Source: a filamentous cyanobacterium CCT1 (lineage in GTDB: Bacteria > Cyanobacteriota > Cyanobacteriia > Phormidesmidales > Phormidesmidaceae). Taken from it: DNA of 47,999 nucleotides. The notes beneath the pieces were generated by a model. The model was not told the DNA's origin. It did not search any database and saw only the letters and a list, made by a program, of their open reading frames with translations. Of this stretch, positions 28,996-30,308 are shown piece after piece; within the stretch, counting starts at the first letter, position 1; each line of letters opens with the position of its first letter. The stretch lies in the NCBI GenBank assembly GCA_003017855.1, contig PYER01000016.1, forward strand, positions 1 through 47,999, written 5' to 3'. A program made the translations under genes and the position numbers.

Positions 28996-29070
28996 TGTCA
29001 ATAGGACGTGAGCTAACCCAAGGGTGGCTCAGCCTATGCCCTGTTGTCATCCGCACTGGCGAAGCAAGTT

Positions 29071-29121
29071 GCACAGGCTAGCCTGTGCGGCAAAAGGTCA
29101 GTACGGTTGAACTTTTGCCGC
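29071..29121. repeat. Perfect palindrome overlapping a 10-bp inverted repeat
   Basis: An 18-bp perfect palindrome GCACAGGCTAGCCTGTGC (29071-29088) overlaps the left arm of GCGGCAAAAG (29087-29096) / CTTTTGCCGC (29112-29121), loop 15 nt. The two structures share bases and so are mutually exclusive or stacked. It lies in the 326-bp gene-free gap upstream of the 79-aa gene. Confidence 0.75.
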
Positions 29122-29243
29122 AGGTTTAGTAGGTTAATGCTGCGGGGAATGATTCTAGGCGGGTAAGAGCGGAGCTGCGAACTCCTCTCCTACCCTAATC
29201 ATCCCAACTTAGTCGAGGTAAGTGAGATGACTGGAATCATTCT

Positions 29244-29313
29244 AGATCCGGTCTCTTGTATTGCCGAAACGAGGGATCTGGATAGTTCCCCGTTTTCTTT
29301 ACCGAAAACGGAG
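29244..29313 (+). promoter_or_regulatory. Structured leader with hairpin touching the ribosome-binding site
   Basis: Upstream of the ATG at 29322, AGATCC (29244-29249) can pair with GGATCT (29274-29279). A perfect 8-bp hairpin, CCGTTTTC (29290-29297) / GAAAACGG (29304-29311), follows. Its 3' arm contains the first GG of the GGAG ribosome-binding site (29310-29313). Folding would hide the site, suggesting translational control such as temperature or ligand response. No known riboswitch class is recognised. Confidence 0.5.
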
Positions 29314-29321
29314 TTACCCGT

Positions 29322-29561
29322 ATGTTTCAACCATCTGACGCAGAGGGCATGACCCCTGCACCGTTTACCCTACCCACCTACCGCCAAGAAACCCTGCGCC
29401 ACATCTTGCTCGGCGACTACGCCGCATTAATGGAGGCCATTAACCAAATGGCGGCACTACGCTACTGCGACAAAATCGCCTGGTCAGATCCCATACCCAC
29501 GGGCCGTAGCGGCGAATACTTGAGCGTAATGACCCGCAGACGAGGGGTGATGACCAGCTAA
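29322..29561 (+). CDS. Small conserved-looking protein of unknown function
   Basis: The 79-aa product contains LPTYRQETLRHILLGDYAALMEAINQMAALRYCDKIAWSDPIPTGRSGEYLSVMTR. It appears to be one helical segment followed by a short Gly-containing strand region. There is no signal peptide. The ATG at 29322 has GGAG 8 nt upstream, partly inside a hairpin, and a terminator follows the stop. The layout suggests its expression is tightly controlled. Similar short proteins occur in cyanobacteria as far as I can judge, but no function is known. Confidence 0.7.
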   Translation: MFQPSDAEGMTPAPFTLPTYRQETLRHILLGDYAALMEAINQMAALRYCDKIAWSDPIPTGRSGEYLSVMTRRRGVMTS

Positions 29562-29570
29562 ATAATCAGA

Positions 29571-29610
29571 AGGCCCCAGAGGTCTAGCAAAACTTTGGGG
29601 CCTAATCTGT
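29571..29610 (+). terminator. Terminator hairpin after the 79-aa gene
   Basis: The stem AGGCCCCA (29571-29578) / TGGGGCCT (29596-29603) has a 17-nt loop. It is followed by AATCTGTTATT, a weak T-tract. It lies 10 nt after the stop codon. Confidence 0.65.
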
Positions 29611-29649
29611 TATTCGTGGTGTCATTAGTTAAGTCTCATCCGGTAAATG

Positions 29650-30069
29650 CTAGATCGTCGCAGATGATATCAATACCAAGAAATCTGCTGCTTTTACAAT
29701 TGCAACATCCTGGTAGTTCGTTAATGACAGAAGATGCTTGTCTCCTGTAACGATATGGGTAGCTCCGCTGGATAAGGCGCACTCCACAACCATGTCGTCA
29801 TCTGGGTCATTGGGAACTGCTCTAAGGGTCTTTGAAATTTTGACTATACGAGAAAAGCTCCGTACTTCATTCGCAGCAGCTTGACCCATTGCTTCGGAAA
29901 ACTTGAATTTGCTTACCAGCTTTTCTGAAAACTCATCCAAAATATCCTGACAGGTGACAGACCCAACCTGTCCTGTTTTTGCCAAGGCCAAGCACCGAAA
30001 AGGAGTACCGGTACTGGTTAGCAACGCAGAAATCAAAATATTGGTGTCAAAGACGACGACGTACTGCAT
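29650..30069 (-). CDS. PIN-domain toxin of a type II toxin-antitoxin pair
   Basis: The 139-aa putative ribonuclease belongs to the COG1569-type PIN family. It begins VVFDTNILISALL, with the first catalytic Asp in FDTN, continues with CQDILDEFSEKL, and has VPNDPDDDMVVECALSSGATHIVTGDKHLLSL with the later acidic residues of the PIN active site. The start overlaps the antitoxin stop by one base (TAATG), typical of coupled toxin-antitoxin genes. The RNA target is unknown. Confidence 0.92.
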   Translation of the reverse strand: MQYVVVFDTNILISALLTSTGTPFRCLALAKTGQVGSVTCQDILDEFSEKLVSKFKFSEAMGQAAANEVRSFSRIVKISKTLRAVPNDPDDDMVVECALSSGATHIVTGDKHLLSLTNYQDVAIVKAADFLVLISSATI

Positions 30070-30308
30070 TACTCTTCGTGCAATACGTCATCGATAAAGG
30101 TTTCGCGCTCTTCTTCGGTCATAGCATCCCAGTTAAGTCCATGCTCTTGAGCTACTATTCTGGCTCTCTCGGCTCCGTAGCTAGAGAGCGAGTTCCACAC
30201 ACTCCATTGCTGAAGTATTAGGTATTTAAATACTTCTACCTGCTGCTGTGGGGGAAGTTGCTTAACAAGTTCAATAACTTGCTCGTTGCTTAAGGTTAGG
30301 GTTGCCAT
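30069..30308 (-). CDS. Antitoxin partner of the PIN toxin
   Basis: The 79-aa protein begins MATLTLSNEQVIELVKQLPPQQQVEVFKYLILQQW, a pattern common in small cyanobacterial antitoxins paired with PIN toxins. It ends TEEERETFIDDVLHEE, an acidic tail suited to binding the toxin. A GAAAGGAGG-type ribosome-binding site precedes the ATG at 30308. It probably represses its own operon, as most such antitoxins do. Its stop overlaps the toxin start. Confidence 0.85.
   Translation of the reverse strand: MATLTLSNEQVIELVKQLPPQQQVEVFKYLILQQWSVWNSLSSYGAERARIVAQEHGLNWDAMTEEERETFIDDVLHEE

What the first reader, a model, noticed from the sequence alone, without database searches (positions are those of the whole stretch)
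28996..29321. Highly structured 326-bp leader ahead of a small unknown gene
An 18-bp perfect palindrome overlapping a 10-bp inverted repeat, a 6-bp pairing, and an 8-bp hairpin whose 3' arm carries part of the ribosome-binding site all precede the ATG at 29322. The mutually exclusive pairings at 29071-29121 are what a switch would look like. This could be a new cis-acting RNA or a small RNA gene.
Basis: partly seen in the sequence, partly recalled or inferred. Interest (0 to 1): 0.55.

Follow-up and report, generated by a model that had tools for sequence, protein, structure and literature searches.

The report
Small gene with address-coded RNA leader
A small cyanobacterial gene of unknown function starts with a folded RNA around its ribosome-binding site; related genes, dozens per genome, carry the same kind of fold with rapidly changing loops, which suggests each is switched by its own matching antisense RNA.

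Summary
The 18-bp palindrome and 11-bp repeat (29071-29122) lie upstream of, or across, a conserved promoter-like pair and are broken in the ortholog. The conserved RNA is about 29142-29321, before a 79-aa gene. It belongs to a dispersed family (in this genome 12 leaders by one RNA model, 26 by another) without Rfam match; the window protein has no Pfam, NCBIfam or PHROG match. Helices show compensatory changes. The 5' strand has two exclusive partners around the ribosome-binding site, and the logic recurs in differently sequenced subfamilies. The P3 and P4 apical loops are hypervariable: in nine ortholog pairs 43% and 51% of sites differ, against 20% at third codon positions. The P3 loop is often inverted, and copies in one genome avoid sharing it (0 observed, 8.5 expected). 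A minus-strand -10 box lies 8-12 nt past P4 in most copies, so an antisense RNA would cover P4 and P3. Best reading: a cis-encoded antisense RNA kisses these loops and sets translation, each copy with its own address, as in plasmid copy control. No transcript was seen; the antisense RNA and the direction of control are inferred.

The parts
29107..29135 (+). Promoter-like pair TTGAAC (29107-29112), 17 nt, TAGGTT (29130-29135); near the 5' edge of family homology
   Evidence: Alignment of 62 copies keeps GTTG and TA...T at about this spacing. Only 7 of 12 consensus bases by my count, and the consensus scan does not list it. A start near 29141-29142 is inferred.
29142..29321 (+). Structured leader RNA (about 180 nt) of the 79-aa gene
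   Evidence: 61-row alignment A1, covariation, z -5.42, RNA model R1 finds 12 copies in this genome
29143..29158 (+). 5' strand with two exclusive partners: P1 (with 29278-29292) or P2 plus P1' (with 29234-29242 and 29317-29321, ribosome-binding site closed)
   Evidence: P1a 99.4% of cells paired but nearly invariant; P2 4 of 9 pairs with double changes; forced P1 -67.4 against MFE -74.4 kcal/mol, P1 pair probability 0.00 in the model
29161..29195 (+). Hairpin P3
   Evidence: 8 of 12 pairs with changes on both sides, e.g. AU:30 / GC:29
29175..29181 (+). Hypervariable apical loop L3, often inverted between relatives
29199..29230 (+). Hairpin P4
   Evidence: 3 of 11 pairs with changes on both sides
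29212..29218 (+). Hypervariable apical loop L4 (7 nt, last two mostly GG)
29239..29244 (-). Predicted -10 box (TAGAAT) of an antisense promoter, 8 nt past P4
   Evidence: TCGGCA-17-TAGAAT, 9 of 12; at least 5/6 in 78 of 85 type-1 copies at a fixed place; no -35 enrichment
29143..29232 (-). Predicted antisense RNA covering P4 and P3; start about 29232, 3' end unknown (the end given is only the stretch folded)
   Evidence: Inferred from the -10 box; the stretch folds into two hairpins with the complementary loops, z -4.51. No terminator found.
29246..29283 (+). Hairpin P5 (state B)
   Evidence: 6 of 14 pairs with double changes, e.g. UA:39 / CG:20; 74.2% of cells paired
29290..29311 (+). Ribosome-binding-site hairpin CCGUUUUC / GAAAACGG; GGAG is 29310-29313
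   Evidence: 100% of cells paired, almost invariant in type 1; type-3 counterpart 2 of 7 double-changed pairs, type-2 counterpart 3 of 11
29322..29561 (+). 79-aa family protein, function unknown
   Evidence: no family at the thresholds used in Pfam, NCBIfam, PHROGs, PADLOC
29571..29603 (+). GC-rich hairpin after the stop codon, possible terminator without a U run
   Evidence: Read from the alignment (stem kept with changed bases in L010, L012, L013, L014, L032); not found by the terminator scan; not counted formally

Best explanation
The segment is a gene with a translational switch leader. Transcription starts near 29142. The leader folds so that the ribosome-binding site sits in its own hairpin (state B, the MFE). 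The 5' strand can instead pair with 29278-29292 (state A), which takes the lower part of that hairpin away and should favour an open site. The input is most likely an antisense RNA of about 70-90 nt, transcribed from the opposite strand from about 29232, whose two hairpins carry loops complementary to L3 and L4. Loop-loop kissing and then duplex formation would capture the 5' strand and keep the site closed. Because a genome holds dozens of copies, loops diverge so that each antisense RNA addresses its own mRNA. SHOWN by sequence: family, conserved fold, exclusive pairings, hypervariable loops, L3 inversion, avoidance of shared L3 loops within a genome, positioned -10 box. INFERRED: both transcripts, kissing, that state A opens the site, direction of control, role of the protein.
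For: Leader family and covariation. Two further subfamilies with different sequences keep both a closing helix and an RBS hairpin; in type 2 the 5' ACAGAAC and the 3' ACAGAAC compete for one GUUCUGU, and forcing the closing helix raises the unpaired probability of the RBS from 0.20 to 0.42, in 8 of 8. RNA model R2, built from 10 type-3 leaders, finds 5 of 5 type-2 loci given and 12 of 12 copies in a genome of another family (one partial), and 26 leaders in this genome; 9 of 9 followed-up hits precede a family ORF, six of them of a fourth subfamily, of which the three in this genome are not among the 42 places of the protein search. Loops: 9 ortholog pairs with both flanks shared, L3 25/58, L4 23/45, rest of leader 82/1571, codon 3 127/648 mismatched. 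L3 exact inversion in 11 of 91 close pairs, shuffled mean 0.12, maximum 2. L3 shared in 0 of 192 same-genome pairs, stratified expectation 8.5, P 0.0002; type 3: 10 of 232 observed, 20.4 expected, P 0.009. Minus-strand -10 box at least 5/6 in 78/85 type 1, 8/10 type 3, 11/11 of the G056 leaders scored, 79/83 of a larger type-3 set; shuffles 1-7%. Kissing-loop control with loop-set specificity is established in plasmids (PMC10724649, passages).
Against: No transcript data. In type 1 the model gives state A little power: forcing P1a changes the unpaired probability of GGAG only from 0.38 to 0.42 (higher in 49 of 61) at a mean cost of 2.3 kcal/mol (7.0 for the window), and in the window's forced state A the GG still pairs in a 4-bp hairpin with 29318-29319. 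No -35 enrichment for the antisense promoter. Type 2 has only TACCAT (4/6) in 8 of 8; the plus strand of the same stretch also reaches 5/6 in 7 of 85 and 3 of 10. No antisense terminator seen. L4 shows no same-genome avoidance (4 observed, 3.7 expected; 3 against 4.5) and no inversion. Copies and pairs are not independent, so the P values are optimistic. Not every covariation measure exceeds shuffles: further pair types 35 against 35.9 (state A) and 61 against 68.4 (state B). At column 195 the P5 partner (61/61 paired) fits better than the P1b partner (50/61). Loop change could be a mutation hot spot rather than selection.
Confidence: 0.55

Rival explanations
1. A ligand-sensing riboswitch: the closed multi-arm domain binds a metabolite and opens the ribosome-binding site; loops vary because they are not part of the pocket.
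For: Closing helix against RBS-hairpin design in three subfamilies; conserved junction segments such as UAACCCC...GGAGGCU in types 2 and 3.
Against: Does not predict loops faster than third codon positions, same-genome avoidance of L3 or the positioned minus-strand -10 box.
Confidence: 0.18
2. Autoregulation: the small protein binds its own leader.
For: Leader and gene together in 9 of 9 hits followed up.
Against: Copies with nearly identical proteins (L063 and L039) have quite different L4 loops.
Confidence: 0.12
3. The loops are only mutational hot spots: hairpin DNA makes template-switch inversions and errors; the leader is otherwise a plain structured 5' UTR or an RNA thermometer.
For: Loop inversions at hairpins are a known product of template switching (PMC8794818, passages); an inversion also fits the plasmid hairpin L261 against L262.
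Against: That paper calls complete loop inversions very rare (rRNA data); avoidance of shared L3 in one genome and the minus-strand -10 box are left unexplained.
Confidence: 0.12
4. A guide-like RNA of a small mobile element, loops matching insertion sites as in IS110 bridge RNAs (comparison recalled).
For: Dispersed copies: 22 of 48 close pairs without a detected shared flank, some because the flank was too short to test; hypervariable loop pair.
Against: Loops match neither flank in either orientation clearly above shuffles; no transposase in the unit; other copies share flanks and look vertically inherited.
Confidence: 0.03

Closest known systems
Antisense RNAI / stem-loop I control of rep in I-complex plasmids (IncK, IncB/O)
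   Same: Leader hairpin recognised loop-to-loop by a cis-encoded antisense RNA; loop bases decide compatibility, stem mutations had no significant effect (PMC10724649, passages)
   Different: Here the controlled gene is not rep, sits in dozens of genomic copies, has two variable hairpins, and the antisense RNA is only predicted
ssr7036 / asRNA1 of plasmid pSYSA (Synechocystis 6803)
   Same: Cyanobacterial small gene with an abundant cis-antisense RNA that the authors compare with ColE1 RNAI/RNAII (PMC9978351, passages)
   Different: That antisense RNA covers the coding sequence, not the leader; Ssr7036 is not a detectable homolog (score -1.4)
Multi-copy type I toxin-antitoxin loci (Ibs/Sib, Zor/Orz; recalled, apart from the listing)
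   Same: Small ORF, antisense RNA, several paralogs needing separate specificity
   Different: The proteins are not hydrophobic (mean GRAVY -0.17 in 30 members); toxicity unknown
Glutamine riboswitch / Downstream-peptide RNAs of cyanobacteria (recalled)
   Same: Structured leader before small cyanobacterial proteins
   Different: No Rfam match at gathering score; a larger fold, variable loops

Membership tests
Antisense-RNA (kissing-loop) controlled leader | Antisense transcript complementary to leader hairpins | not testable with these tools
   Only a positioned -10 box; no RNA data
Antisense-RNA (kissing-loop) controlled leader | Stable hairpins with small apical loops that carry the specificity | tested here: inconclusive
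   Hairpins P3 and P4 covary and their small loops are hypervariable; that the loops carry specificity is not tested
Antisense-RNA (kissing-loop) controlled leader | Members in one cell do not share loops | tested here: inconclusive
   Supported for L3, not for L4
Antisense-RNA (kissing-loop) controlled leader | RBS accessibility depends on alternative folds | tested here: inconclusive
   Exclusive pairings by sequence; computed effect on the RBS clear in type 2 (0.20 to 0.42, 8 of 8), small in type 1 (0.38 to 0.42, 49 of 61)
Type I toxin-antitoxin system | Small hydrophobic toxin | tested here: not met
   GRAVY mean -0.17 (range -0.39 to 0.06) in 30 members of A2, -0.28 in 14 of A3
Any Rfam family | Covariance-model score at or above the gathering threshold | tested here: not met
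   Whole window 0 matches; 15 loci 0 matches; 29090-29620 up to E 5 only a match after the ORF at 0.23
Ligand riboswitch | Specific metabolite binding | not testable with these tools
   -
pSYSA Ssr7036 family | Homologous small protein | tested here: not met
   hmmsearch score -1.4

The most novel reading that the evidence does not exclude
Cyanobacterial genomes carry arrays of up to about 40 mutually insulated antisense-controlled small genes, in which flipping, fast-evolving hairpin loops act as an address code; loop inversion and diversification keep new copies from cross-talking, so plasmid-style incompatibility logic runs inside a chromosome.
Probability: 0.4. Interest if true: 0.85.

Novelty: new variant of a known kind. 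Interest (0 to 1): 0.7.

Why it matters
It would be a large, uncatalogued RNA-controlled gene family of filamentous cyanobacteria with an unknown protein, and a natural set of dozens of orthogonal antisense switches in one cell. It makes testable how RNA specificity diverges after gene duplication, and whether hairpin loop inversion is a source of new specificities.

Tried and rejected
Palindrome 29071-29088 as part of the RNA: rejected. L3 or L4 pairing elsewhere in the same stretch: no excess over reassigned loops. Loops matching the flanks: no clear excess; the largest deviation was L3 5-mers at the 3' side, 38 against 29.7, sd 3.9, not seen at 6 or 7. Palindromic (self-kissing) loops: no excess. 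Solved-structure and fold searches: best PDB sequence match E 0.76, Foldseek none at E 0.001 or better, VIA-align best Z 4.0 over 64 residues, rmsd 3.5: uninformative. Phages: no match to one distant member, L223; the window protein itself was not searched there. RNAalifold on types 2 and 3 together was poor, because sub-subfamilies misalign; the helix counts suffer from this too, and its inner-PA rows (both types) and PB rows caught a wrong partner or register and are not used. Rows dropped: searches use 85 distinct full copies, partial copies left out; one search parsed 84 of 90 leaders and scored 83 for the box; two G064 leaders had no anchor and the partial G056 leader L306 was not given; A1 leaves out one of 62 copies (L042). 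Papers: PMC10724649, PMC9978351, PMC8794818 and PMC5126843 seen as passages only, the others as search listings. Searches list no paper whose title or shown abstract describes this family; that is all I can say about print.

Full report
What was claimed and what is there. The window is cyanobacterial: close copies come from Nodosilinea, Leptolyngbya and relatives. The segment has 15 DNA matches in its own genome, itself included, and matches in 23 of 57 genomes searched, its own included. Of 75 loci aligned to it, 44 alignments begin at 29096-29103 (14 earlier, 17 later) and 61 end at 29535-29564 (12 later, 2 earlier) (recount), so the conserved unit runs from a promoter-like pair to about the end of the 79-aa ORF. 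The palindrome and the 11-bp repeat lie before or across its 5' edge and are broken in L078, the only one of the loci held that shares the window's upstream flank. Six other genomes of the genus keep a relative of the upstream gene (69-71% identity), but nothing of the unit was found beside it within the 1.5 kb or less held.

The gene is real. Of 62 full copies 57 keep an ORF of at least 76 aa from the aligned ATG. In 34 pairs that are 90-97% identical outside the loops, codon positions 1, 2 and 3 differ at 5.5, 2.4 and 19%. No Pfam, NCBIfam, PHROG or PADLOC family matches the window protein; a scan of 30 members gave only weak Pfam matches (best E 0.006). AlphaFold gives a beta-alpha-beta core (mean pLDDT 77.9) without a convincing relative.

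The leader is a structured RNA. The 183-nt leader folds at -74.4 kcal/mol, z -5.42. On 61 aligned leaders, state A pairs 92.9% of cells (shuffled 88.9) with 13 double-changed pairs (shuffled 9.6); state B pairs 86.7% (shuffled 82.1) with 21 (shuffled 17.7); the count of further pair types does not exceed shuffles in either. P3, P5, P2 and P4 carry the double changes, P1b two. The RBS hairpin and P1a hardly vary in type 1, so they say little there.

Two folds compete. In state B the 5' end pairs with the bases just before the AUG (P1'), 29147-29155 pairs with 29234-29242 (P2), and the RBS hairpin is 8 bp. In state A the same 5' strand pairs with 29278-29292 and shortens the RBS hairpin. State A costs 7.0 kcal/mol more in the window, 2.3 on average over 61 copies. 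UUCC (29286-29289), unpaired in state B, is almost invariant, which state A explains. The computed gain in RBS accessibility is small in type 1 (0.38 to 0.42, higher in 49 of 61) and clear in type 2 (0.20 to 0.42, 8 of 8); in the window's forced state A the GG of the site still pairs weakly with 29318-29319. That state A is the open state is thus an inference.

The same logic in other sequences. The protein profile finds 42 places in this genome at E up to 1, the weakest probably chance. Two further subfamilies (types 2 and 3) have leaders of quite different sequence. In type 2 the 5' ACAGAAC and the 3' ACAGAAC compete for GUUCUGU; in type 3 the GGG of the closing helix is shared with the RBS hairpin. 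RNA model R2, from 10 type-3 leaders, matches 21 of 51 sources given (20 places): 5 of 5 type-2 loci, 12 of 12 copies in genome G056 of another family (one partial), two G064 loci and L278. It does not match the type-1 leader in the window, the eight G524 loci, L223, L243 or most single loci from other families. R2 finds leaders in 20 of 37 genomes, 26 in this one; R1 found 12 here and leaders in 20 of 57 genomes. Nine R2 hits that I followed up are all followed within 8 nt by a family ORF, six of them of a fourth subfamily. Protein relatives: 85 of 388 genomes of the class with profile A2, 23 of 292 of a phylum sample with A3, 13 plasmid records with L223, 10 with the window protein.

The loops. 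In closely related copies the two apical loops differ. For 9 pairs from different genomes with both flanks shared, mismatches are L3 25/58, L4 23/45, rest of leader 82/1571, codon 3 127/648. In 11 of 91 close pairs L3 is the exact reverse complement of its counterpart (17 are the same; shuffled mean 0.12), including window against L078. Type-3 loops contain two inverse pairs among 28 distinct loops (null 0.05), and the 17-18 nt loop of a different hairpin on two Scytonema plasmids is closer inverted (edit 3) than direct (edit 9). Within a genome no two type-1 copies share L3 (0 of 192 pairs; 89 of 3378 between genomes; stratified expectation 8.5). Type 3 repeats this more weakly (10 of 232 against 20.4). 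L4 does not show it.

The antisense promoter. A consensus scan of 29000-29700 lists two promoter-like sites, both on the minus strand (0.7 expected, sd 1.0). One is TCGGCA-17-TAGAAT with its box at 29239-29244. In 78 of 85 type-1, 8 of 10 type-3 and 11 of 11 G056 leaders scored, a box with at least 5 of 6 matches lies 8-12 nt past P4 (shuffles 1-7%; the plus strand of the same stretch 7 of 85, 3 of 10, 0 of 11), and in 79 of 83 of the larger type-3 set. In type 1 the variants are TAGAAT, TACAAT, TAAAAT: only the third base varies. Type 2 has TACCAT in 8 of 8. There is no -35 signal. Transcription from here would start at the base of P4 and cover P4 and P3; that stretch of the minus strand folds into the two complementary hairpins (z -4.51).

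Interpretation. Hypervariable small loops on conserved stems, loop inversion, avoidance of a shared loop and an opposing promoter that frames just these hairpins are together what a cis-antisense kissing system predicts. In IncK plasmids, loop bases of the antisense RNAI decide compatibility while stem mutations had no significant effect (PMC10724649, passages). In cyanobacteria, pSYSA has a small gene with an antisense RNA that its authors compare with ColE1 (PMC9978351, passages); its protein is not related. Loop inversion has been traced to template switching (PMC8794818, passages), so the mutation mechanism may be ordinary even if its retention is selected. Transcripts, direction of control and protein function are not shown here.

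Noticed in passing
window 29650-30069 and 30069-30308, minus strand: PIN_3 domain protein (Pfam E 2.4e-20) with a short partner ORF just upstream of it: probable type II toxin-antitoxin pair next to the finding; this stretch has no match in the ortholog L078.
   Followed up: no
L308-L315 (genome G524): Family members in a genome that looks like Cylindrospermopsis curvispora (one contig has the length of its plasmid) have a different leader: one hairpin of about 11 bp with a hypervariable loop of 23-24 nt in otherwise conserved DNA, after a TTGCAT-17-TATAAT pair in several copies; two loop orientations seem to exist.
   Followed up: partly
L260, L265, L266, L267: On four Nostocales plasmids a family member lies within about 2 kb of an integrase gene; on T. 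variabilis plasmid D (L259) it lies between parG and a replication gene.
   Followed up: no
L041 (own genome C493), 1077-1302: Internally deleted family copy: leader start followed directly by the middle of the ORF.
   Followed up: no
G012:C8:197914-197985, G003:C275:13060-13170: R1 matches only over model positions 32-104 or 32-140, i.e. P3 and P4 without the rest: decayed copies or solo hairpin pairs.
   Followed up: no
L298-L307, L316, L317 (genome G056): Family copies up to 97% identical over about 700 bp at scattered chromosomal sites, so copying is recent in some lineages; how they move is unknown.
   Followed up: partly
window 29152-29157, minus strand: A second minus-strand TAGAAT at the 5' strand of P2; 25 such sites of at least 5/6 in the 85 type-1 copies; may be a by-product of its pairing with the first box.
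   Followed up: no
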